DNA of 64,000 nucleotides from Deltaproteobacteria bacterium GWC2_55_46 (GCA_001595385.3 LVEI03000001.1:682001-746000), one strand, 5' to 3'; numbered from the stretch's first letter, positions 8,492 through 19,043 are shown. Numbers and translations: made by a program. Notes: generated from the sequence alone by a model not told the origin.

Positions 8492-8578
8492 GCCGGAGTG
8501 GTGAAACAGGCAGACGCGCGGGACTCAAAATCCCGTGGGAGCAATCCCGTGAGGGTTCGATTCCCTCCTCCGGCACCA
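8492..8578 (+). tRNA. tRNA-Leu (anticodon CAA), target of the integrated element
   Basis: An 87-nt class II tRNA: acceptor GCCGGAG pairs with CTCCGGC, anticodon arm CGGGA-CTCAAAA-TCCCG gives CAA, a long variable arm GGGAGCAATCCC follows, T-arm GAGGGTTCGATTCCCTC, and CCA is encoded (8576-8578). The sequence from the anticodon stem onward was probably supplied by the island, since another version of a tRNA-Leu 3' half sits at the far end of the element (18985-19043). Confidence 0.96.
8520..8537 (+). other. attL core in tRNA-Leu
   Basis: The 18-bp block GGGACTCAAAATCCCGTG of the anticodon arm is identical to 18985-19002. Weaker similarity continues through the T-arm, CCA end and about 35 bp beyond. 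Recombination in the anticodon arm is typical of tyrosine integrases that use tRNA genes. Confidence 0.88.
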
Positions 8579-8644
8579 ATAAAATCAAGGGCTTACAGGG
8601 TTTTTAAGGAATTCTACCTGTAGCCCTTTTTCTTTAGCAAGGTA

Positions 8645-8668
8645 TTTGTCCAACCCCTGTCCAACCTA
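8645..8668. repeat. left copy of 24-bp end repeat (probable integrase arm site)
   Basis: Exact match to 18845-18868 in the same orientation. Internally it is two copies of TGTCCAACC separated by CC. Tandem short boxes near both ends of an integrated element fit arm-type integrase binding sites. Confidence 0.75.
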
Positions 8669-8669
8669 A

Positions 8670-8707
8670 TAAAAAAGACCGCCCCCCTTTTCAGGGAGCG
8701 GCCTTCC
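8670..8707 (-). terminator. terminator at the end of the element's long minus-strand gene string
   Basis: On the minus strand GGCCGCTCCC pairs (with two wobbles) with GGGGGGCGGTC around a GAAAA-type loop and is followed by TTTTTTATT. It lies between the last small gene and the left att site. Confidence 0.8.
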
Positions 8708-8856
8708 GGCATGGGTGCCTGGGGTTATGTGGCGGGTGTGAGGAAAGTTATTATAGGGAGCCGGACGCCGGGCCGGATAACCAGTATCCGTCATGGTCCC
8801 GGACGCCCGCTCCCAGTGTGCCCCTCAATGCCGATACATCGAGAGGGCAGCCTGTA

Positions 8857-9027
8857 TCAAGCTCCTAATGCTATCGCGTCGAGTTCGCGCCTCGGGTGCT
8901 CGCCCCAGGGTGATTCCTCAAAGCCTCTATGCTCAAGAGGCCCGGCGCATTTACCGCAAAGGCGATCTGCCTCGATGGTCATAAAGTCGAATGTAGAGCC
9001 GCAAGCCGAACAGATATACACGTTCAT
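8857..9027 (-). CDS. 56-aa zinc-ribbon-like protein of the element
   Basis: Sequence begins MNVYICSACGSTFDF and contains a second pair CGKC; the C-x2-C ... C-x2-C arrangement fits a small zinc ribbon. The ATG at 9027 overlaps the TGA of the preceding gene (ATGA), so translation is probably coupled. It is the last of four tiny genes before the element's terminator. Function is unknown; such small ribbons are common in phages. Confidence 0.68.
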   Translation of the reverse strand: MNVYICSACGSTFDFMTIEADRLCGKCAGPLEHRGFEESPWGEHPRRELDAIALGA

Positions 9028-9272
9028 CGTTTCCGTCCTTTCATTCCGGGTGTGTTCCGGCGCTCCGGTAGAATAACCAGCTGTATCAGCTTATTGACGG
9101 TCCTGAAGTACGCCGCCCGGAGCCTTGCCATTGCCGCCTTATCGTCTCTAAGGTGTGCCTGGACGGAAGCCCGGTCGAGCCTCTTTTCCTCTGCCCATAG
9201 AGCTTTGAGCCTGTCCATGTACGCCTCTGGAGCTTCCGTTGAAAATAGACCGATTAAAGGGCATTCTCTCAC
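9024..9272 (-). CDS. 82-aa helical hypothetical protein of the element
   Basis: Charged, helix-rich protein (EAYMDRLKALWAEEKRLDRA; RLRAAYFRTVNKLIQLVIL) with a basic tail. Its start overlaps the end of the 9269-9595 gene and its stop overlaps the start of the next gene, each by four bases. I recognise no family. Confidence 0.65.
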   Translation of the reverse strand: MRECPLIGLFSTEAPEAYMDRLKALWAEEKRLDRASVQAHLRDDKAAMARLRAAYFRTVNKLIQLVILPERRNTPGMKGRKR

Positions 9273-9595
9273 GGAAGAAAACCAGAATCAGAGGGCGCAA
9301 CCTTCTTCATAAATGGGCGCAAATGGTCAACATTGCCCTTTCTTCCTCTCAAGGCCGGATTCGTGCCTAACCTGTAGTCCCATAAGCTGCATTTATGGGG
9401 AGACGGATTCAGGATGTTACCCTGGCAGGAAACAACCTCGGCGCGGCTGCCCACGCAATCGTGGCAATGGCCCCTTATCCTCTTCAGCGGAGACAACCGG
9501 CGGTCATTCAGATTACAGGAAGTGCTCTCACAATCAAACCGCTGCCCGGACTTGCAGTAGCGGCATTGAACCTCAATGGCTTTTCTGGGAGTCAT
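9269..9595 (-). CDS. 108-aa cysteine-rich protein of the element
   Basis: Start chosen at 9595 (MTPRKAIEVQCRYCKSGQRF) because it follows GAAGGTG and overlaps the stop of the preceding gene. Cysteine pairs CRYC, CESTSC, CHDC and a later C and CSLW pair suggest one or two zinc sites. Similar cysteine-rich small proteins occur in phages, but I cannot name a family. Part of the ATGA-coupled run 9735-8857. Confidence 0.65.
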   Translation of the reverse strand: MTPRKAIEVQCRYCKSGQRFDCESTSCNLNDRRLSPLKRIRGHCHDCVGSRAEVVSCQGNILNPSPHKCSLWDYRLGTNPALRGRKGNVDHLRPFMKKVAPSDSGFLP

Positions 9596-9735
9596 ACCCG
9601 TTTCACCTTCTTTGTAGGCTTCTTTCCTTCCTGTCCGTAAAGAACGTCCGTGGGCTTTAAATCCTCTTTGTTGATTACGCAATACCCGCCCGGACATTCC
9701 GGCCTTACTATCCTTATAGTTTCAATCTCACTCAT
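9592..9735 (-). CDS. 47-aa hypothetical protein of the element
   Basis: Short frame MSEIETIRIVRPECPGGYCV ending in a lysine-rich tail, start preceded by GATGAGGTG, stop overlapping the next start by four bases. Unknown function; supported mainly by ribosome site and coupling. Confidence 0.55.
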   Translation of the reverse strand: MSEIETIRIVRPECPGGYCVINKEDLKPTDVLYGQEGKKPTKKVKRV

Positions 9736-9837
9736 ATTAGCACCTCATCCATTTATTAGGAGCCCCCCGCCCCGGAGGAGATTGCCGGAGCGGAGGGCAG
9801 AGAAGGGACCCGCATGGCAACGGGCCCCTTCAGCTTG

Positions 9838-10977
9838 CTATCCGAGCAGTATTGCTGCGTGCTCGGGTTTCACCATTTTGTAGCCCCATGCCGCCGAAAC
9901 TTCGTAGTGCATCTGGCGGTAGCCGGGATACATTGCCACTTCAAAAGCCAGGCCAGTCCTCGCGTCCGAGATAGCCAGCCTATCCGAAGCCAGGTCCCCG
10001 CCAGAAGGAAGCGCGGGCAGCCTCGTTGCAAGGACTATCGCGGAACGGGCAAAGGCCAGATTGTTGACCGAATTCGCCCCGATGGTCATAGCCGTGGCGC
10101 TCCCCGGAATAGCTTGCCGGAGCCCAGGAGCCGCTATAACTATCGTCCCCGGTTCCGTAACCCCGGTCGTAACGATATACTTATTTGAGTCTCCGGCAAA
10201 TGTAACTGTGTCCCCCGCCAGGACGGTCCCGGAGCCGGTGATTATCGGGATGGAAGTAGTCCCGATAGCAAACCCCGCGTTCGTCGTGGTGTAGGACGTG
10301 CCCGTGCCTTTGGTGTGGCTCTTGACCTGCGCGGACTCCTGCACGCCGAAGCCGTGAAGGGAGAGAAGCTCGCCCTGTCTGAGAGTCGCATCGCCGCCCG
10401 CCTGGTTCGCGTTTGTCAACTGCGTCAGCGTCCTCAGGGCCGTTCCTGCGTCCGTGTTGATAACCAGGTGCAGGTCAGATAACGGACTGCCGTTATTACT
10501 GAGAATCTTACGGAGGGCCGCCGTGTCCGCGAGAGTCGTAGCAAAAGGCGTTGTTCCTGCCGTACCAGTAGCCCTCGAAGCTGCAACATACAGACTCGCA
10601 ATGTCGGCTTCTATCTCGTTAACGATAGCCCTCATGGCCTGTTCTATCTGCGCGGACTGAATCGTACCAGCGCCGGGGCCGTGGTTTACTCCGACCTCTT
10701 CTTCGCCCGTCCACCTGAAGGGCGCTCTCCTGGACTTGCTTATGGTAACTTCGACGTTGCCGATGGTCTGATCGCCGTCGTCCGGGACCGTCGAGGCCGG
10801 AGTAACATCGGAAACGGTAGCAGCCGGGGCCACTATCGAGCGGACGGACTGGTTAAGGGCCGCGCGTTCAACTCCGCTGTCGCGGGTGACGGACGGAATG
10901 AATCCGGTAAGTTCGCGTGAAACAGTGTCAAGGGCCTGGTACAAAATAGGCACAAGGTTTGTGAGTGTGTTTGACAT
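9838..10977 (-). CDS. major capsid (coat) protein, P22 gp5-like
   Basis: Forms the icosahedral shell. The 379-aa protein begins MSNTLTNLVPILYQALDTVS and contains VTISKSRRAPFRWTGEEEVG, which resembles P22-type coat proteins, followed by helix-rich and then glycine/threonine-rich beta segments (about 220-310, GTSYTTTNAGFAIGTTSIPI; VLAGDTVTFAGDSNKYIV) that could be the extra Ig-like/I-domain insertion, and a C-terminal part with MYPGYRQMHYEVSAAWG. Somewhat shorter than P22 gp5 (430 aa). It follows the scaffold-like gene by 9 bp. It is the only clear virion gene in the element. A hairpin at 9802-9831 follows it. Confidence 0.82.
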   Translation of the reverse strand: MSNTLTNLVPILYQALDTVSRELTGFIPSVTRDSGVERAALNQSVRSIVAPAATVSDVTPASTVPDDGDQTIGNVEVTISKSRRAPFRWTGEEEVGVNHGPGAGTIQSAQIEQAMRAIVNEIEADIASLYVAASRATGTAGTTPFATTLADTAALRKILSNNGSPLSDLHLVINTDAGTALRTLTQLTNANQAGGDATLRQGELLSLHGFGVQESAQVKSHTKGTGTSYTTTNAGFAIGTTSIPIITGSGTVLAGDTVTFAGDSNKYIVTTGVTEPGTIVIAAPGLRQAIPGSATAMTIGANSVNNLAFARSAIVLATRLPALPSGGDLASDRLAISDARTGLAFEVAMYPGYRQMHYEVSAAWGYKMVKPEHAAILLG

Positions 10978-10986
10978 TTGAAGCTC

Positions 10987-11541
10987 CTATTCTTTTAGCT
11001 GCCCGCCGGAGCGGACAAATGTGGTTTTTCGTGGAGCGTCGAGCCTGTCAAAATCGGCCCGACGCATGGTTTTAGTCTCCCCCGCATTGTGGCGCATGAA
11101 GGTGCCCGCGCCCGCTGTGGGTGCGGCTTTCGCAAGGTGCGGGTTATCGGTCAAAAACCCCTCAAGATATGTTTTGACGGACAAAGGACTGCCAGCCTCA
11201 TCGAGACGGACAACGCCTTTTTCGTCAACTACCTCGAGTACACCATCTTCTCCGATTGCGATATTTTCATTGATTAGCTTCGCAACCTGTATTCCGTTTA
11301 CCGCGCCAGTCGAGGCCACTTCCGCTTGTAGAAGGGCCTTCCTGATACGCTCGTTCTGTCCGTCCCTCTCCTTTTGGAGAGTATCGTTACCCGCCCGGAG
11401 CGTTTCAATCTCGCCCTGGGCTTTTGCCTCGGCCTGTACAACGGCTTCGGCAAGTTCTTTTTCGTGCTTGGCCTTTATCTCGCCAACCCGCTTGTTTATC
11501 ATGGCGTCAATCGTCGCCTGCTGTTCTTTAGAAAAGTCCAT
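10987..11541 (-). CDS. scaffold-like protein preceding the coat gene
   Basis: 184-aa, strongly helical protein: MDFSKEQQATIDAMINKRVG followed by a long charged coiled coil (about 20-70) and an Ala/Arg-rich C-terminus. Position directly before the coat gene, coiled coil and acidic/basic layout fit an internal capsid scaffolding protein, which would direct coat assembly. The start at 11541 follows GGGAGGAG, and this ribosome site sits directly against the IS30 insertion. Its N-terminus resembles that of the truncated gene at 12613-12777. Assigned by context and composition; not a firm family match. Confidence 0.62.
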   Translation of the reverse strand: MDFSKEQQATIDAMINKRVGEIKAKHEKELAEAVVQAEAKAQGEIETLRAGNDTLQKERDGQNERIRKALLQAEVASTGAVNGIQVAKLINENIAIGEDGVLEVVDEKGVVRLDEAGSPLSVKTYLEGFLTDNPHLAKAAPTAGAGTFMRHNAGETKTMRRADFDRLDAPRKTTFVRSGGQLKE

Positions 11542-11559
11542 TATTTATCTCCTCCCGAA

Positions 11560-12612
11560 TTCAACCTCGAAGTGCAACGAAGGGAGCAGCTACTTCGATT
11601 GGTTTTTTGAAGCCCAGGCATTTTCTGGGTCTGTTGTTGATTAAGAACTCGATTCTGGCGATCTGGTCGTCCGTTATCTTACTGAAGTCGGTGCCCTTGG
11701 GCAAGTACCACCTGATGAGGCCGTTTACATGTTCGTTTGTGCCGCGCTGCCATGAGGCGTAGGGGCGCGCGAAGTAGCACTTGATGCCTATTGCCGATGT
11801 AATGGCCTCATGCCTTGAATTCTCGGTGCCGTTATCGAAGGTCATGGTCCGTCTGGCCTTTGACGGTAGGTCTCCGAGTCTCTCCACAACGGCATTATAG
11901 GTGGCCTCCGCTGTCTTGGCGTCGAGCTTGGTAAGCATAAGATACCTGCTCTTGCGCTCCACCAAGGAGTTGAGGGCTGCAAGGCTCTTTCTGGAGACCA
12001 GGCTGTCGCCTTCCCAGTGGCCGAACTGGATGCGACTTTCAACGGCTTGAGGCCGCTGGTCTATGGGAACGCGGTTGGGTATCTTGGTCTTACGCTCTTT
12101 TCTGCCGATGCCTTTGTTCCTTCGCTTGCGGTGTGCCCTCCTGAGGCACCGTATAAGCTCCTGACGGTCTTTTGTGTCAGGATGGTAGATGTACTGGTAA
12201 ATGGCCTCGTGGCTTATTGAGAGCCCCGGCTGGTCGATCTCGATTCTCCCAGCTATTAGCTCCGGCGACCAGCCATCCTTGAGCATGGAGCGCACATAGG
12301 CCTCGATGCTCTCGTTCTTGAGCCTCTGATGCGTATTGGCCTGTTTCTTTCTCTCTTCGGCTCTGCCGTGTGCCCTGTGGGACATGTAGAGCCGATACGC
12401 AGGCGTTGCATTGCGGCGAAGTTCCCGTGAGACAGTGCTCTTGCTTCTTCCGAGGGCCTTGGCTATTTCCCCGAGGGACTTCTCCTCGGCAAGCATGGTG
12501 GTTATTAAGTCTCTTTCAGACAAAGACAGGTGAACATATTCTCTTTTCGGCATAGCCACTTAGGATAGCATCTTCCTTCCTGCTCTCCCAAGTGTTGCAC
12601 TTCGCTATTGAA
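11560..12612. mobile_element. IS30-family insertion sequence
   Basis: About 1.05 kb with imperfect terminal inverted repeats: left TTCAACCTCGAAGTGCAACG (from 11560) and right, read inward, TTCAATAGCGAAGTGCAACA (from 12612). One transposase gene fills it. It splits the 3' end of a small element gene from the scaffold-like gene. CGG occurs at both junctions and may be the target duplication if the left end is placed two bases further out. Confidence 0.87.
11561..12553 (-). CDS. IS30-family transposase
   Basis: Catalyses transposition of the surrounding IS. N-terminal helix-turn-helix region (LSLSERDLITTMLAEEKSLG, IAKALGRSKSTVSRELRRN) is followed by a DDE integrase core: D in FGHWEGDSLV, D in MTFDNGTENSRHE and E in WQRGTNEHVNGLIRWYLPKG. 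The C-terminus NNRPRKCLGFKKPIEV is characteristic. Start at 12553 (MPKREY) preferred over the ATG two codons earlier. At 330 aa it is intact and presumably active. Confidence 0.93.
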   Translation of the reverse strand: MPKREYVHLSLSERDLITTMLAEEKSLGEIAKALGRSKSTVSRELRRNATPAYRLYMSHRAHGRAEERKKQANTHQRLKNESIEAYVRSMLKDGWSPELIAGRIEIDQPGLSISHEAIYQYIYHPDTKDRQELIRCLRRAHRKRRNKGIGRKERKTKIPNRVPIDQRPQAVESRIQFGHWEGDSLVSRKSLAALNSLVERKSRYLMLTKLDAKTAEATYNAVVERLGDLPSKARRTMTFDNGTENSRHEAITSAIGIKCYFARPYASWQRGTNEHVNGLIRWYLPKGTDFSKITDDQIARIEFLINNRPRKCLGFKKPIEVAAPFVALRG

Positions 12613-12777
12613 CCGGCGCCTTAAAAATCCAAATAGTTTTTTGTTTTTTAATTCCTCAATCTCTGCCTTGAGTGCGTCTATCTCGGCTTGTGCTTTGCGC
12701 CGTCCTTTGCCGTATGCTTCGTTGATTAATCTGTCAACGTGTATCTGTTGTGTAGGCGTGAAGGAAACCCGCTCCAT
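12613..12777 (-). pseudogene. element gene truncated by IS30 (N-terminal 55 codons)
   Basis: Reads MERVSFTPTQQIHVDRLINE and a lysine/glutamate-rich helix up to GFLRRR, then enters the IS (frame stops at 12505 inside it). Its N-terminus is similar in layout to the scaffold-like protein (FTPTQQIHVDRLINEAYGK versus FSKEQQATIDAMINKRVGE). If the IS is removed with a CGG duplication, the frame would continue REEINNGLF and stop over the scaffold start, giving about 63 aa. Its ATG overlaps the stop of the upstream gene (TAATG). Confidence 0.65.
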
Positions 12778-13442
12778 TATTCCCCCCCCAGGGCCGCCTT
12801 TGCTTTTGCCGCCTCAGCCTCGTGGAGTTCAAGGGCGCGGAGCTTCACGGGATCGCTGTACTCTGAGGCCGCCGTTAAAGAGGTCTTGACTGCCGCCTGG
12901 ACGTGCTCATTCAAGTCCCGATAGGTATCACGGGCCTTGACGATATCAGGGGCCGCCGTCTGAAAATACTGTTCACGAAACTTTCCAATATCCTCAGAGG
13001 AAAGGCCGGTGAGCATCGAGGGCGCGTCAATGATTGCCGCAAGTGATGAACCATCACGGGACTCAATCATGGCCTGTACGACCTTTACCTTTTCTCCGGG
13101 TGCCATGCCCTGTAGCCTCTGCCTTATCTCGACGGCATAAGGACCGTTGACAAGGCCGCTGTGCTCTCTCAGGCTGGACTCAAAAGAGGCCCCGGCGGAT
13201 GTAGCCTTCGTGGTTATAGCGGCCTCAGCCGCCTCTGCAAGAACCTGAAGCCTGGCCGCTGCCCTCCCTACATTCAAGGCGTGGTCCCCGCCCTGAGGGT
13301 TTGCCCGGATAAATTCCACGGCCTTTAAAGCGTCGGCAAGGTCATTGAGCGTCGTCTGCAAGGCTTTGTGGTCCCGGTTCTGCTTGTCGTGCTTTTCCTG
13401 AAATCTTACCTTGAGTGTGTCCAGTGCTTTCGTGTAGTCCAT
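12777..13442 (-). CDS. 221-aa helical hypothetical protein of the element
   Basis: Alanine-rich, almost entirely helical protein with no signal peptide (MDYTKALDTLKVRFQEKHDK ... AAEAAITTKATSAG ... KVVQAMIESRDGSSLAAII). Start at 13442 follows GGAGAGAAA. I recognise no family. Location upstream of the scaffold and coat genes suggests a virion- or assembly-related role, but a regulatory role cannot be excluded. A 170 bp gap at 13443-13616 upstream could hold its promoter. Confidence 0.6.
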   Translation of the reverse strand: MDYTKALDTLKVRFQEKHDKQNRDHKALQTTLNDLADALKAVEFIRANPQGGDHALNVGRAAARLQVLAEAAEAAITTKATSAGASFESSLREHSGLVNGPYAVEIRQRLQGMAPGEKVKVVQAMIESRDGSSLAAIIDAPSMLTGLSSEDIGKFREQYFQTAAPDIVKARDTYRDLNEHVQAAVKTSLTAASEYSDPVKLRALELHEAEAAKAKAALGGE

Positions 13443-13616
13443 TTCTCTCTCCTGTATGTGGGCGCGGGATTGCGCTTTATTTGACTAAAAAGGTCTAATT
13501 TGTACGGAAATGTAACCCTCGAATTTTCATGGGAAAATAGTTGAAACCTGCGCCTTGGAATCCGCACGTTATGTAACAATCTCTGAACCCCAAGAGGGGG
13601 TAAGTGTTTGATATCA

Positions 13617-13799
13617 TTAATTAAATTCCTTTTTATCCATCACGGAAACATCCGGCTTACAAGTGCACGGGCCTTTCCCTTTCAGGCGCGGGCAGTCGTG
13701 GTCATGCTTAATTAATATGTGGCCTATGCCGCCCTTCGGTGTTTGGGCCAGCTTCCCCGCCTGATAGCCCTCTATTAATTTTTTAAGCCAGTTTTCCAT
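13617..13799 (-). CDS. 60-aa hypothetical protein downstream of the iterons
   Basis: Starts MENWLKKLIEGYQAGKLAQT and ends with a cysteine-containing part (HDCPRLKGKGPCTCKPD) that could bind metal. It lies directly beyond the iteron array. No clear ribosome site is visible because iteron sequence runs into the start, so this call is moderate. Confidence 0.5.
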   Translation of the reverse strand: MENWLKKLIEGYQAGKLAQTPKGGIGHILIKHDHDCPRLKGKGPCTCKPDVSVMDKKEFN

Positions 13800-13809
13800 T
13801 TAATCCCTT

Positions 13810-13936
13810 GTCCGGTTTTATGTCCGTTTTGCGTCCGGTTTGCGTCCGTTTTGTCCGGTTTACCTGTTTTGCCTGTGTCCGGTTTGTCCGGTTTATGTAT
13901 GTAATACATAACCGGACAGGACAGTACAACCGGACA
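13810..13936. repeat. iteron array with central dyad, probable replication origin of the element
   Basis: GTCCG(G)TTT units start at 13810, 13822, 13833, 13844, 13853, 13877 and 13886, mostly 9-12 bp apart (about one helical turn). Inverted units (CCGGAC) follow at 13912 and 13930. The last direct unit and first inverted unit form a dyad, TCCGGTTTATGTAT against ATACATAACCGGA (13887-13916), with an AT-rich centre. The array begins 7 bp beyond the primase-polymerase stop codon. Confidence 0.8.
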
Positions 13937-13942
13937 GGACCA

Positions 13943-15766
13943 TCAAAAGACGGGTGAGACAAAGCCGTGTGCTTCATGTACCGCTTGAGCTTCGATTAAC
14001 GCCCTTGTAACCTCAGCAATCCTCTGGCGTGGAAAGTCCTCGTCCTTGAGTGCATCTTTCCAATCAGCTAAAGAAATCCTGGCGGCTTCGCCTTCGCGGT
14101 CCTGCCGGGTGCTCCAGATATTCATCAAGACTTCATTTGCGCGTGTCTGCCACTTCCCCCGTCCTTGCTTTCCCTTCGCCGCCCGTGGTTCGTAGGACGT
14201 AAGCTCAAGGGCCGCGCCGGTGATAATCTCGCCGGTGTCGGGGTCTATCAGGTCGAGGTCAACTGGCCGCAGCCGGAACGCCATAGGTTCAGGGTGCTCG
14301 GCGTCTTTCATTTTTGTGGCCTCAAAGCGAATGGTCCCGGTTTCGTCTTTGTCCAGCCGGTACTCGGAATCGAGGGCCGCCTTGAGGGACATCGCCCCGC
14401 GCGCCCTTGTCTTATCAGCATGGCCGCTGTGGTGAACCAACAGGACGGTCGAACGATAGCGCGCCCGGATTGCGTCAGCCGCCGAAATTGCTTTAGACAT
14501 ATCTGAAGTGCTGTTTTCGTCCGCTGGGCCAAAGTTCCGGGCCAGGGTGTCGAATATGACGACGCGCGGAGGTCCTGCGGAAGCTGCGATATCATCGATC
14601 GCCTTTAGAACCTCGTCGAGCGCGTCCGGGTCTACAAGGGCCGTGGGAGACATAGAGACAAAGAAAGGCGCGCTATCGTGGCTTACGCCGCGCAACGCGC
14701 TCCAAGCCATCAACCTGCGCTTTATTCCGTTCTGGCCTTCGCCGCATACGTAGACAACGGGGCCGTGATCAGCGATAACATGGCCGTGAAAATCCGTACC
14801 CGTAGCAACGCTCAGGCCGATATCCATCGCCCAGAAGCTCTTGCAAGTCCCAGGGTCCCCGAATACGAGGGCCAGGGCTTCCGCTTCCAGAATGTCACGC
14901 ACAACCCACCTCGGAGGGCGCGCTTCGATTGCGCTTGCATGGACTAATTTAAAATGACGGTCTGTTTTTGTTCCGGCCTCTGGAGTTCCCGCCGGTTCGT
15001 ATCGTGCTACGCTCTGGGCAATGCCCTCGACCTCGGCATCAGGGAGGGGAGGACTACATTTTTCTTGATTCTCTACTCGGAGCGCGGCCAGGATTGCGGC
15101 CTCGGAGAAACCGCGCCGCCGCATGGAACCGCCCTGGCTGGTAAGAGACGCGTTACGCGCCCCCTCTGGCATGACTTCCCCTATCGCCGGAGCTGTGGTC
15201 TTTTTTGCCGCTGGTTTTGCCAGTTCCAAAAGCCAAGCCGGGGCCTCTGCTATCTCCTGTCCGGCGAGCGGGTCAGATGAAAGCTCCCAGGTGTAAATTT
15301 TGCCGTTCCTATGAAGCGACGGCGGCACCACGATATAACCGCCATCGGCCTTAATATCAACTTCCGCGAGTACGCCAGTTTTGCTCGCAAGCCCGCCAAC
15401 CGGCCTCTTGAAAATCAACTGCCGCCCGCGCCCCGTGTGCTGCTCAGCGGTGTCAGGCATCGCGTAACCTTCGAGCGCCGCCTCGCCTTGCTCGCCGTCG
15501 ATATCGCATGATGTAATGCCGCTTTCCTCGCCCGTCACAACCCCGATATTTGCTTCCGGCCATTGCGCCCACCACCTGCGGATTATGGCCGTGTCGGTTG
15601 TGGCATCGTCGCGCCCGTTCATGGTGCGCGGGTGCTTGCCAATGGATGTGCAATCTTTTTTACGGCAAGAGCAACCACCATTTAAAGGCGTGTGCAGCGG
15701 AAAGACGGGCCAGCCTTTTTCGGCATAGGCAAGCGCGTGTGTTATAAGGTCATCCGCGCCCGTCAT
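13943..15766 (-). CDS. bifunctional primase-polymerase with RecA-like ATPase domain
   Basis: Likely replication initiator/primase of the element. Start set at 15766 (MTGADDLITHALAYAEKGWP), overlapping the upstream stop as TAATG; upstream in-frame sequence is rejected. Residues about 1-190 form a Prim-Pol domain (GWPVFPLH, Cys cluster CSCRKKDC, catalytic-type SCDIDG, HTGRGRQLIF). A short primase C-terminal segment follows (about 215-260, RNASLTSQGGSMRRRGFSE). From about 290 a RepA/AAA_25-type ATPase has Walker A GDPGTCKSF, VVYVCGEG and Walker B-like VVIFDTLARN with LVHHSGHADKTRARG. 607 aa. The iteron array lies just downstream. Confidence 0.88.
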   Translation of the reverse strand: MTGADDLITHALAYAEKGWPVFPLHTPLNGGCSCRKKDCTSIGKHPRTMNGRDDATTDTAIIRRWWAQWPEANIGVVTGEESGITSCDIDGEQGEAALEGYAMPDTAEQHTGRGRQLIFKRPVGGLASKTGVLAEVDIKADGGYIVVPPSLHRNGKIYTWELSSDPLAGQEIAEAPAWLLELAKPAAKKTTAPAIGEVMPEGARNASLTSQGGSMRRRGFSEAAILAALRVENQEKCSPPLPDAEVEGIAQSVARYEPAGTPEAGTKTDRHFKLVHASAIEARPPRWVVRDILEAEALALVFGDPGTCKSFWAMDIGLSVATGTDFHGHVIADHGPVVYVCGEGQNGIKRRLMAWSALRGVSHDSAPFFVSMSPTALVDPDALDEVLKAIDDIAASAGPPRVVIFDTLARNFGPADENSTSDMSKAISAADAIRARYRSTVLLVHHSGHADKTRARGAMSLKAALDSEYRLDKDETGTIRFEATKMKDAEHPEPMAFRLRPVDLDLIDPDTGEIITGAALELTSYEPRAAKGKQGRGKWQTRANEVLMNIWSTRQDREGEAARISLADWKDALKDEDFPRQRIAEVTRALIEAQAVHEAHGFVSPVF

Positions 15767-15987
15767 TAAATGCCGTCCTTCGTCCTGGCCTGCAGCCACG
15801 CGCAAAGGTCTTCGACGCGATAGAAAATCTTTCGGCCCATTCTTCCTCTCGCCGGGCCTTCGCCCAGGCTGTCGAGGTTCGCCAGCGTCCTCGCGTTCAA
15901 AAGTCCGCCTGTAAACTTCGGGACTTCGTGCCTCGCCACTATGCCGGACGGCCACCTTTTAGCGAGTTCCTGAAAGTCAAAAGTCAT
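15766..15987 (-). CDS. AlpA/excisionase-like helix-turn-helix protein
   Basis: 73-aa protein MTFDFQELAKRWPSGIVARH ... GRMGRKIFYRVEDLCAWLQ. The pattern of a small winged HTH with 'Y.VEDL.AWL' at the end is that of the AlpA/Xis-type DNA-binding proteins that control excision in satellites and prophages. It precedes the primase-polymerase with a TAATG overlap, and is itself preceded by a terminator, so it begins a transcription unit. Start at 15987 follows GGAGGGGAC. Confidence 0.75.
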   Translation of the reverse strand: MTFDFQELAKRWPSGIVARHEVPKFTGGLLNARTLANLDSLGEGPARGRMGRKIFYRVEDLCAWLQARTKDGI

Positions 15988-16011
15988 AATGTCCCCTCCT
16001 TTTAAAATAAA

Positions 16012-16044
16012 AAAAACCCACGCTGATTTTTCAGCATGGGTTCA
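16012..16044 (-). terminator. terminator between the 280-aa gene and the AlpA-like gene
   Basis: On the minus strand AACCCATGCTGA pairs with TCAGCGTGGGTT around AAAA and is followed by TTTTTTTATTTT. It separates the integrase/cargo genes from the replication and assembly genes. Confidence 0.88.
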
Positions 16045-16112
16045 TCTTACGCTTTATGAATATTTGTTCCCGGTACATTCGGAAGATTTTTTATCCTCGA
16101 ATGTTCCGATTC

Positions 16113-16955
16113 TTACCGTTTCGGTTTTCGCGCCTTAGTGATATTGTCCGCCTCAATATCCTCATCAAAAAGAGCTTTTACAATTCCCGCCAAGCTCTCA
16201 TCCGTCAGCTTAAATCTCTCCGGAAGGTTGCAACAAATGTCCCGGTCCTGCATAATACAGTCTTCAAAGCCTCTTACGAAATCGGCATAACTTGTTTTGC
16301 GCGAATCGCTTACCGCGTCAACCTCAGAACGGCAGCCCGATATGGGGCTTTCCATCTCACGCTTTAGAGCCGCGAGAACATCCTGTATTCGCGGCATATA
16401 CTTCCCCATGCGCAAGCCACCATCAACCTTTGCCAATATGGGCACTACATGGCCTTCAAAAAGGAATTGCCTTTCCACTGTTCCAGATTCCAGCCCTGCC
16501 CTTTCAACCAGGTGTAAGGGGCAAGTATTGGCCGCGCTTGTCAAGTAACTCTCCTCTTTAATTCTGTTACGCTTATCGAGGAATTTTATCAGTTCCTCGG
16601 TTGTTTTAATTATGTCCTCCTGTGCTTCCTCTAAATCTTTACGATCCCTCTTTATGTTACGCTTTTCCTCATAGACTATCGCTGCATCAACGATTGCGGC
16701 CAAAACCGCTCGTCTGCCTAATCCGCCGTTTCCTCTCGGCGTGGAGCGGTCTGTTATCTTATGTTCAATCTCGGCATATACCGGGTTCATAACATCCGAG
16801 TTTTCTTTAAGTCGCTTGAGTATGTTTTTTTGCTCGGCTGTCGTCGTCTGTATTATTCTGTTGAGGCCGGGGTCAAAATAGCCGTTGATTCCCTCATCAA
16901 TGAAATCGTCAGCCCATTTATGTGAACCGTTTTGGGGCCCTTTAAATCGCTTCAT
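16113..16955 (-). CDS. 280-aa unknown protein in the cargo position
   Basis: Start at 16955 (MKRFKGPQNGSHKWADDFID) with GGAGAGGTG seven bases upstream; the GTG three codons earlier is within that ribosome site. Contains NPVYAEIEHKITDRSTPRGN, an Ala-rich helix, a lysine/glutamate coiled coil (about 98-135) and a C-terminal helical part with scattered cysteines. No membrane segment or known motif. AT-richer than neighbouring chromosome genes, as are the next two genes. It lies between the ART-like gene and the AlpA-like gene, where satellites often carry accessory or defence genes. Function unknown. Confidence 0.6.
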   Translation of the reverse strand: MKRFKGPQNGSHKWADDFIDEGINGYFDPGLNRIIQTTTAEQKNILKRLKENSDVMNPVYAEIEHKITDRSTPRGNGGLGRRAVLAAIVDAAIVYEEKRNIKRDRKDLEEAQEDIIKTTEELIKFLDKRNRIKEESYLTSAANTCPLHLVERAGLESGTVERQFLFEGHVVPILAKVDGGLRMGKYMPRIQDVLAALKREMESPISGCRSEVDAVSDSRKTSYADFVRGFEDCIMQDRDICCNLPERFKLTDESLAGIVKALFDEDIEADNITKARKPKR

Positions 16956-17055
16956 TTTTTGCACCTCTCCGTGCCTCGCTTTTTATTATTGCCCCGAAGC
17001 CGGAAGCGAGAGAGAGTTCCGGTTTTCGGCCCGTCGGCCTATCGGGGCAAGCTGT

Positions 17056-17622
17056 CTATCCCTTCTTTACAGGTATCTTTGTCAATTTCATATCTTTAGG
17101 TATGTAGCAAATAAATTCTTGTTCCTTTCGCTCATTGATATAGGCATATATATTTTCAACCGGAATAATAGCCTTGAACACTACAGGGTCCGACAAATAC
17201 GCATATCTTGATGAAAACCACTTTGCCAGCTCAAGGTCTGCCGTCCAGGACAGACCTCTTACCCTTCGCGCCGCACCTTTTCCGGCAACTCCACGATAAA
17301 GAGTAAAGGGACCGTTACCGGGCAAGGGATCTCCAGCCGATAACAGCCGCGTGCGGTCTGCTATATCAAAAAAAAGGTAATCAAGGACAACCTTAGAAAT
17401 ATGCATATTGTTTAATCGACAAATTATGAAGGCATGGAGAAGGGCATCTTCGAATAATCCCGCTTTCTTTAGTGAAATATGATTGTCACAAACAAAGGCT
17501 AAGTTTGCCATATTGTCCATCTTGATAAGAACGCCGAATATATCGCGTTCTTCCCAACACTGCAGAGCTTGTTTTCTTAGAGATAAATCTATAAGAGATA
17601 AATCCAATTGTGTGTTATCCAT
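17056..17622 (-). CDS. probable ADP-ribosyltransferase-fold protein (R-S-E type)
   Basis: 188-aa soluble protein. The C-terminal half carries the spaced motif set of R-S-E ADP-ribosyltransferases: YRG (109-111), SWT (125-127) and E-x-E (E167, E169 in KEQEF), with VFKAIIPVENIYAYI between as the expected beta strands. Members transfer ADP-ribose from NAD to protein or nucleic acid; the target here is unknown. The N-terminal half (1-100) is helical and unrecognised. It starts 5 bp after the integrase stop codon, so it is expressed with the integrase. No antitoxin is obvious unless the 280-aa neighbour serves. Motif reading by eye, not a search result. Confidence 0.55.
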   Translation of the reverse strand: MDNTQLDLSLIDLSLRKQALQCWEERDIFGVLIKMDNMANLAFVCDNHISLKKAGLFEDALLHAFIICRLNNMHISKVVLDYLFFDIADRTRLLSAGDPLPGNGPFTLYRGVAGKGAARRVRGLSWTADLELAKWFSSRYAYLSDPVVFKAIIPVENIYAYINERKEQEFICYIPKDMKLTKIPVKKG

Positions 17623-17627
17623 CGGCG

Positions 17628-18812
17628 TTATCCCTTCTTTACCAGCTCAATCACTTTGCCCTGTTCAGGCACAAGGGCCTGTGCAAGTCCGCTCATAGCG
17701 CGCCTCTGCGTGTCCTCGTCTCCCTTTGCATACCTGAAAACCATTGAGGGAGTTTTCCAGCCGAAAAGTATTTGAAGGTCTTTAACAGGCGTTCCTCTCC
17801 GGGCCGCCAGTGTCGCCGCCGTATGCCTCAAGCTATGGAAAACAACTTTGTCCCGCGCTCCCCTGCCCTTGTTAAGTTCAAGGTTCTTGACGGCAGTCCT
17901 GAAGGCTTGCGGGGTCTTTTCAAACGGGGTTCCGTCCTTCATGGTGAATACATACTCGCCGGGGCCGCCTATGCCGCGCCGCTCCATCATCTCAATGACG
18001 GCTGGCACAAGGTAAACCGTGCGCGGTTCTTTGTTCTTGGTGTCAGGGAATAAGGCCGTGCTTCTGGCCAAGTTCACGTGCTCCCAAGTAAGCCGCGCCG
18101 CCTCGGAGAAACGGCATCCGGTGAAGGCACAAAACATGGCTATGTCGTGAGTTGCCGTTTCGGTCACGCTCAGATAATCGAGTATGCTTTTTAACTCTGT
18201 CGGAGTAAGTACCCTGAGCCGGGTATTATCCATTTTGGGAAGCGTGACGCCGATTGCCGGGTTATCCCCTGCCTTTACCAGCTTCCTCTTTGCCGCGTGT
18301 TTCCATATCCTGTAAAGGGTCCCAACGGCATACTGTTGTGTACGCGGGGTCAGCTTATCCTCCCTCATACGGTCAAGCATCCGATCAACATCTTCCGGCG
18401 TGATTGTTTTAATAGGCTTGTGGCCCATAACCGGAAAAATCCGCTTCGTGTAATGCGCAAGCTCTTTTTCCCAGGAGGTTTCCTTTATCCTGGCCTTGAG
18501 GTTATGGACATAATCCTTGTCCCAAAACTCTGAAAGGGTAAGGCCCTCTGCAAGCTGTAGGGCCCTCTTTTGTTCCTCTAAGGATTTTTCCTCTCGATAG
18601 GTTTGATGTTTTTTGAGTAGATCGCCTCTTTTATCTGAGGCCGTTTTTTCTGTCCAGTCTTTTTCAGAGGCCCAACCCAGGGCCTCCTGTACCATCTTCC
18701 CGTTCAATTTATAAAATATGGTGAAGTACCTATCCGGTTTAGCGCCATGCGTCCTTGTCGGGTGTTCGCGCCAACGGACGCCAGTCCTTTTACTCTTTAT
18801 CCATTTCGCCAT
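17628..18812 (-). CDS. int: tyrosine recombinase (integrase)
   Basis: Catalyses site-specific integration into tRNA-Leu. 394 aa with an N-terminal DNA-binding region (YFTIFYKLNGKM), a core-binding domain (about 90-180) and a catalytic domain with R234 (TGCRFSEAARLTWEHV), H326-x-x-R329 (HSLRHTAATLAARRG), W352 (LFGWKTP) and nucleophile Y361 (VFRYAKG). The gene sits at the end of the element next to attR and the right 24-bp arm-type repeat, the usual place. Start at 18812 follows GGAGGTC. Confidence 0.95.
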   Translation of the reverse strand: MAKWIKSKRTGVRWREHPTRTHGAKPDRYFTIFYKLNGKMVQEALGWASEKDWTEKTASDKRGDLLKKHQTYREEKSLEEQKRALQLAEGLTLSEFWDKDYVHNLKARIKETSWEKELAHYTKRIFPVMGHKPIKTITPEDVDRMLDRMREDKLTPRTQQYAVGTLYRIWKHAAKRKLVKAGDNPAIGVTLPKMDNTRLRVLTPTELKSILDYLSVTETATHDIAMFCAFTGCRFSEAARLTWEHVNLARSTALFPDTKNKEPRTVYLVPAVIEMMERRGIGGPGEYVFTMKDGTPFEKTPQAFRTAVKNLELNKGRGARDKVVFHSLRHTAATLAARRGTPVKDLQILFGWKTPSMVFRYAKGDEDTQRRAMSGLAQALVPEQGKVIELVKKG

Positions 18813-18844
18813 CGGCAGACCTCCTTAAAATCCCGTGGAGTGTT

Positions 18845-18868
18845 TTTGTCCAACCCCTGTCCAACCTA
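18845..18868. repeat. right copy of 24-bp end repeat (probable integrase arm site)
   Basis: Exact match to 8645-8668. It lies 33 bp upstream of the integrase start, where it could also affect integrase transcription. Confidence 0.75.
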
Positions 18869-18984
18869 TATAGCTGAAACAGTGTGTTTTTACGGTAAGT
18901 CTCAGGAAGTCAGAATATCAAGGAAAACAGAGGAATGTCAAGGGGTTTGTGCGGTTTAGTGAAGTTATGGTAAGTAGTTCAAAA

Positions 18985-19043
18985 GGGACTCAAAATCCCG
19001 TGACCGCAAGGTCGTGCGGGTTCGACCCCCGCCTCCGGCACCA
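18985..19043 (+). pseudogene. attR: displaced 3' half of tRNA-Leu
   Basis: Starts with the 18-bp att core and continues as a different tRNA-Leu 3' half: variable arm GACCGCAAGGTC, T-arm GCGGGTTCGACCCCCGC, acceptor CTCCGGC, then ACCA. It has no 5' half. It was probably the original end of the chromosomal tRNA gene, displaced when the element brought its own. Confidence 0.85.

What the first reader, a model, noticed from the sequence alone, without database searches (positions are those of the whole stretch)
8538..19002. Compact satellite-like element with its own coat and scaffold but no portal, terminase or tail
The tRNA-Leu element combines integrase, AlpA-like regulator, primase-polymerase with adjacent iterons, and a P22-type coat plus scaffold-like gene, all in 10.5 kb on one strand. 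Known P4-, PICI- and PLE-type satellites share the integrase-regulator-primase-origin backbone; capsid-forming PICIs carry capsid genes but normally also portal and terminase. Here the genes are tightly overlapped and both att sites, terminators and iterons are intact, so simple decay of a prophage is not the obvious explanation. A satellite that makes its own shell while borrowing portal, packaging and tail from a helper would be unusual.
Basis: partly seen in the sequence, partly recalled or inferred. Interest (0 to 1): 0.8.

Follow-up and report, generated by a model that had tools for sequence, protein, structure and literature searches.

The report
Satellite-like element carrying its own coat
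A 10.5 kb mobile element in a bacterial leucine-tRNA gene carries its own virus coat and scaffold genes but no portal, DNA-packaging motor or tail; a coat-less sister in the same genome argues that it is a phage-satellite-like parasite rather than a broken prophage, though this is untested.

Summary
Core-to-core (8520-19002) the element has a tRNA-Leu(CAA) att pair, an integrase, an int-alpA RNA, an AlpA-like gene, a Prim-Pol/AAA primase with ACCGGACA iterons, a scaffold and a P22-fold coat. No portal, terminase or tail gene was found.

The decay reading is weakened by a sister element in the same genome (tRNA-Gln, 8.3 kb). It has the same order (int, AlpA, primase, p221-like, scaffold, p142/p82/p56-like) with an own TerS and no coat. 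All 53 near-invariant coat positions are kept. Coat relatives elsewhere sit in ordinary phages with portals.

Best reading: a P4/PICI-like satellite that supplies its own shell proteins and takes portal, packaging and tail from a helper. It fits neither the capsid-forming PICI definition nor PICMI. Packaging is untested, and the present copy may be crippled by the IS.

Unexpectedly, the host carries a single-copy, order-wide, GTA-like head-tail cluster. A 54-aa satellite gene matches only the scaffold N-termini of such clusters (and weakly the sister's). A GTA-exploiting satellite is possible but unproven.

The parts
8492..8578 (+). tRNA-Leu(CAA) with attL; core GGGACTCAAAATCCCGTG at 8520-8537
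8642..8668 (.). arm-type integrase repeat TGTCCAACCCCTGTCCAACC (left end)
   Evidence: 96% identical to 18842-18868; function inferred
8857..9027 (-). p56, zinc-ribbon protein, homologous to sister p54 (56%)
9024..9272 (-). p82, unknown, 65% identical in the sister; also near the end of a G004 element
9269..9697 (-). p142, Cys-rich protein, counterpart of sister p73 by position and Cys motif
   Evidence: similarity judged by eye
9838..10977 (-). coat (major capsid) protein, 379 aa, P22 gp5 fold
   Evidence: phrog_283 3e-91; Foldseek P22 1.9e-17; 53/53 conserved positions kept
10987..11541 (-). scaffold-like protein, 184 aa, phage-type
   Evidence: phrog_206 3e-6; nearest to G022 phage scaffold
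11554..12618 (-). IS30-family insertion sequence, later arrival, 3-bp CCT target duplication
12619..12777 (-). p54 gene (now read as a 90-aa ORF running into the IS): resembles N-terminus of GTA-like scaffold; start overlaps the p221 stop
12777..13442 (-). p221, all-helical unknown, homologous to sister p235 (27-29%)
13617..13799 (-). p60, small protein; 50% identical copy beside a related primase in G029
13809..13936 (.). iterons (six exact ACCGGACA plus variants) around an AT-rich palindrome; presumed replication origin
   Evidence: function inferred
13943..15766 (-). primase-polymerase/AAA helicase, 607 aa; start overlaps the AlpA stop (TAATG)
15766..15987 (-). AlpA-like regulator/excisionase, 73 aa
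16014..16043 (-). strong terminator hairpin just before alpA; equivalent hairpin in the sister
16113..16964 (-). p283, unknown; homologue in a G002 tRNA-Arg element
16974..17049 (-). int-alpA RNA (RF02996), 49 bits
17056..17622 (-). p188, integrase-contiguous gene; phrog_4776; ART-like motif by eye
   Evidence: ART reading is inference
17628..18812 (-). tyrosine integrase, 394 aa
18842..18868 (.). arm-type integrase repeat (right end)
18985..19043 (+). attR: partial tRNA-Leu copy, core at 18985-19002

Best explanation
It is a phage-satellite-like integrative element of the P4/PICI/PICMI type that has acquired a phage scaffold-coat cassette. Proposed steps: a helper signal releases the AlpA switch; integrase plus AlpA excise the element; Prim-Pol replicates it from the iterons; its own scaffold and coat build a shell; portal, terminase and tail come from a helper. 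Shown here: the gene set, the att sites, the sister element, the intact coat sequence and fold. Inferred: induction, replication, shell formation and use of a helper.
For: The sister element in the same genome (L121:5374-13721, exact 44-bp att repeat in tRNA-Gln) has int-AlpA-primase-p221-like-scaffold-Cys protein-p82-p56 in the same order at 28-68% identity, with TerS (phrog_57, 3e-33) and no coat, portal, TerL or tail. So the layout without portal is shared by two divergent elements. The coat keeps 53/53 near-invariant positions and is no more divergent than phage coats, and folds as P22 coat. The IS30 insertion deleted nothing: removing it and one TSD restores p54-stop, Shine-Dalgarno and scaffold start. 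About 100 coat relatives are ordinary phages; about 70 loci have a portal by profile and five of the rest by Pfam. A same-genus genome has a further int-primase-TerS element at tRNA-Met.
Against: No TerS or packaging-site gene was recognised in this copy. No helper is demonstrated. p221, p82 and p142 have no known function. Only one element with exactly this coat-bearing layout was found. Other elements in the genus (G002 tRNA-Arg; G004) carry isolated head or tail genes and look partly degraded, so decay does occur here. The IS30 separates scaffold-coat from upstream promoters.
Confidence: 0.6

Rival explanations
1. Deletion remnant: a temperate phage that lost portal, terminase and tail, leaving integrase, replication, scaffold and coat.
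For: In phages scaffold and coat lie directly downstream of portal and TerL, e.g. G022:C16 (TerL-portal-scaffold-coat; coat 63% identical). Elements in the same genus carry stray head or tail genes. A recent IS30 sits beside the cassette.
Against: Both this element and its divergent sister lack portal, TerL and tail while sharing p221, p82, p56 and gene order. The IS insertion is simple, with TSD. All ORFs are intact and coat residues conserved.
Confidence: 0.2
2. Interference element: coat, scaffold pieces or p54 are made not to package the element but to poison or remodel the heads of incoming phages or of the resident GTA-like particle.
For: p54 is a scaffold N-terminus without the rest. 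The sister scaffold lacks the last ~35 residues of the full scaffold and has no coat. Satellites often act through scaffolds such as Sid and TcaP (PMC10945586).
Against: A full coat gene is not needed for interference; Prim-Pol, iterons and att sites point to a replicating mobile element.
Confidence: 0.1
3. Satellite of the host's own GTA-like cluster: portal, TerL and tail come from the conserved chromosomal head-tail cluster rather than from an infecting phage.
For: The cluster supplies the one portal of this kind found in the genome and has TerL and tail genes. p54 hits only cluster scaffolds, plus weakly the sister scaffold, among all ORFs of the fetched loci, including about 100 phage loci; shuffled sequences never reach its score.
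Against: The element's coat and 184-aa scaffold are nearer to phage types. The cluster's own coat is of another family. Phages related to the cluster are poorly sampled, so p54 may come from such a phage. No search for other prophages in the host was exhaustive.
Confidence: 0.1

Closest known systems
Capsid-forming PICI (cf-PICI)
   Same: Integrative satellite with own capsid gene; average about 14 kb (PMC10803314)
   Different: By definition cf-PICIs also carry portal, head protease, connectors, TerL, TerS and HNH and borrow only tails (PMC10690885); here only coat and scaffold were found
P4-like and PICI satellites (Sid, Cpm, TerS)
   Same: tRNA or chromosomal integration, AlpA-like regulator, primase with adjacent iterons, about 10 kb; the sister's scaffold plus TerS without coat resembles this plan
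   Different: They remodel the helper's coat and do not carry a coat gene
PICMI (Vibrionaceae)
   Same: int, integrase-contiguous gene, AlpA, primase; minimal size
   Different: PICMIs carry no capsid genes, target fis, and use DUF3987/DUF5906 primase (PMC10803314); here tRNA-Leu, Prim-Pol/AAA and coat
Mulch/Flayer satellites (Streptomyces)
   Same: Satellites with own MCP and scaffold
   Different: They also have TerS, TerL, portal and adaptor, and no primase (PMC10690885)
HK639-type siphophage head module (phrog_283 coat)
   Same: Scaffold-coat gene pair
   Different: Phage modules have TerS-TerL-portal-morphogenesis genes immediately upstream

Membership tests
Phage satellite (general) | Small integrative element with integrase, regulator and primase but without a full virion gene set | tested here: met
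Phage satellite (general) | Mobilised in particles made with a helper | not testable with these tools
   needs induction and particle sequencing
cf-PICI | Own major capsid protein | tested here: met
cf-PICI | Own portal, head-tail connectors, TerL, TerS, HNH | tested here: not met
   no such match in any element ORF scanned; definition from PMC10690885
PICI/P4-like | Gene for capsid-size redirection or TerS without own coat | tested here: not met
   coat present, no TerS recognised; the sister element does carry TerS and scaffold without coat
PICMI | No capsid genes; integration next to fis; DUF3987-type primase | tested here: not met
   criteria from PMC10803314
Prophage remnant | Relative with the same integrase/replication genes plus full head-tail genes | tested here: not met
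   none among fetched phage and host loci; not exhaustive
int-alpA RNA carriers | RF02996 between integrase and alpA | tested here: met

The most novel reading that the evidence does not exclude
A satellite that exploits a gene transfer agent: the element brings its own P22-type shell plus a GTA-scaffold-like adaptor (p54) and takes portal, terminase and tail from a vertically inherited, order-wide GTA-like cluster in the host chromosome.
Probability: 0.1. Interest if true: 0.93.

Novelty: new variant of a known kind. Interest (0 to 1): 0.7.

Why it matters
Known satellites either reshape a helper's coat or carry a complete head and packaging module. An element with coat and scaffold but no portal would be an intermediate, and would ask how a foreign portal is accepted into a shell built by another element. 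The pair of sister elements, one with coat and one with TerS, in one genome beside a GTA-like cluster makes that question directly testable.

Tried and rejected
IS30-mediated deletion of a portal/terminase block: rejected, since the TSD is present and the empty site is coherent. p221 as a hidden portal or TerS: 221 aa, all-helical, no significant structural match. Portal-less coat loci elsewhere: L005, L011, L031, L055 and L090 looked portal-less to my first profiles but have PF04860 portals. Wider family search by scaffold, p221 and p82 in viral contigs gave nothing. CRISPR spacers against the element: no convincing match in 48 order genomes. PADLOC defence families: none. TerL in the own genome by PF03354 and PF05876: none, but the GTA-like TerL (Terminase_6 type) escaped both, so those negatives are weak. 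The host taxon was not identified.

Full report
OBSERVATION. The window holds an integrated element in tRNA-Leu(CAA) (8492-8578). The 18-bp core GGGACTCAAAATCCCGTG is repeated at 8520-8537 and 18985-19002, followed by a diverged copy of the tRNA 3' half (83%) and trailer (87%); 27-bp arm-type repeats lie just inside both ends. All element genes are on the - strand: integrase, p188, int-alpA RNA (RF02996, 49 bits), p283, AlpA-like, Prim-Pol/PriCT_1/AAA_25 primase, p60, p221, p54, scaffold, coat, p142, p82, p56. The primase start overlaps the alpA stop (TAATG). Six exact ACCGGACA iterons in both orientations surround a palindrome just downstream of the primase. A strong hairpin with a T-run precedes alpA (z -4.9), and the sister has a similar one (z -3.5).

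COAT AND SCAFFOLD. The coat matches phrog_283 over its full length (3e-91). Its AlphaFold model (pLDDT 84, 30 sequences) matches P22, Sf6 and CUS-3 coats in the top 17 places (best E 1.9e-17). Against 83 distinct phage coats it keeps all 53 positions that are at least 95% conserved, and its mean identity (54%) is close to the median of the set, so it shows no sign of relaxed constraint. The scaffold is a weaker but consistent call (phrog_206 3e-6; PF06810 2e-4 below cut-off) and is nearest to a phage scaffold in a same-family genome, G022:C16, where the order is TerL-portal-scaffold-coat (coat 63%, scaffold 34%).

An IS30-family element occupies 11554-12618, 100% identical to two other copies in the genome. 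It is flanked by a CCT duplication, and removing it restores a 54-aa gene ending just before the scaffold's Shine-Dalgarno and start. It therefore deleted nothing, but it now stands between the upstream genes and scaffold-coat, so this copy may be impaired. The scaffold's own Shine-Dalgarno survives and the IS is co-oriented; any read-through transcription is conjecture.

SISTER ELEMENT. The primase and integrase led to a second element in the same genome (L121:5374-13721 = G000:C2, 8.3 kb, exact 44-bp att repeat in tRNA-Gln). Order: integrase (34%), p222, AlpA (38%), primase/D5 helicase (68% over PriCT), repeats, TerS (phrog_57 3e-33), p221 homologue (27-29%), scaffold (36-39%), Cys-rich protein, p82 homologue (65%), p56 homologue (56%). 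It has no coat, portal, TerL or tail, and its scaffold lacks the C-terminal segment. Two divergent elements sharing a portal-less plan argue against a one-off deletion. A third, simpler element (D5 primase, TerS, integrase, tRNA-Met) is in G005.

RELATIVES OF THE COAT. About 100 coat loci were fetched from genomes, viral contigs and phages. Portal profiles hit about 70. Five long loci that seemed to lack a portal have PF04860 portals and, where tested, TerL; the remaining misses are mostly short contigs. No coat locus shares this element's integrase or primase. I therefore found neither a parent prophage nor a second coat-bearing, portal-less element with this layout. p82 was found only in this genome and G004 (a marginal G002 hit aside), and p221 only in this genome, among the genomes searched.

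MECHANISM. Most likely a satellite: helper signal, AlpA-dependent excision (as shown for PICMI, PMC10803314), Prim-Pol replication from iterons, own scaffold and coat shell, and helper portal, terminase and tail. Only the anatomy is shown. It is not a cf-PICI (portal, connectors and terminases are defining, PMC10690885), not a PICMI (no capsid genes), and not a plain PICI/P4 (it carries a coat).

A POSSIBLE RESIDENT HELPER. Searching the own genome with the G022 portal found one portal at C1:2220862-2222241. It sits in a cluster TerL-portal-scaffold-capsid-adaptors-tail tube-tape measure-tail-endolysin with no integrase or replication gene, between ychF and lpxC. The portal is present in 34 of 48 genomes of the order, nearly always once, with identity falling with kinship (82-83% genus, 64-77% beyond). 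The cluster is syntenic in the twelve loci examined, with ychF upstream in ten of them; dN/dS within the genus is 0.05-0.17. This is what a vertically inherited gene transfer agent looks like (compare PMC9662315), but no particle is shown. Among all ORFs of the fetched loci, p54 hits only scaffolds of this cluster and, weakly, the sister scaffold; it scores 95 against the resident one versus 52 for its own scaffold and 44 for the G022 phage scaffold. A GTA-exploiting satellite is thus not excluded. I give it about 0.1, because the coat and main scaffold are phage-like, phages related to the cluster are under-sampled, and my prophage search of the host was not exhaustive.

VERDICT. A real element, best read as a new variant of phage satellite, with packaging untested and the current copy possibly impaired by IS30.

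Noticed in passing
G000:C1 about 2219590-2232550 (L167:13590-19804 and L168:1-6750): GTA-like head-tail cluster (TerL, portal, scaffold, capsid, tail tube, tape measure, endolysin) without integrase, between ychF and lpxC; single copy and syntenic across the order (portal in 34 of 48 genomes), dN/dS 0.05-0.17 in the genus. I found no description of it in the papers searched.
   Followed up: partly
L121:5374-13721: Second satellite-like element in tRNA-Gln with own TerS and a C-terminally short scaffold, no coat.
   Followed up: yes
window 12619-12777: A 54-aa gene resembling only the N-terminus of the GTA-like scaffold, placed upstream of the element's own scaffold.
   Followed up: yes
L137:5825-19901 and L143:1-4959 (G002, tRNA-Arg): Integrated element with capsid (C-terminal part of a protease-capsid family), Neck1, tape measure, D5 primase and a p283 homologue; no portal or TerL matched in the ORFs scanned.
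   Followed up: partly
L144:1-7400 (G004): Element end with p56 and a broken p82, TerS-like and portal-tail fragments, and a partial capsid gene; looks degraded; sits at a tRNA-Arg(CCT)-like 3' end.
   Followed up: partly
window 11554-12618; G000:C1:1039667-1040731; contig C3 ends: Recently active IS30-family element, three 100% identical copies, one spanning the ends of contig C3 (so C3 is probably circular).
   Followed up: partly
window 17056-17622: p188 next to the integrase has an R...SWT...EQE pattern suggestive of an ADP-ribosyltransferase; judged by eye only.
   Followed up: no
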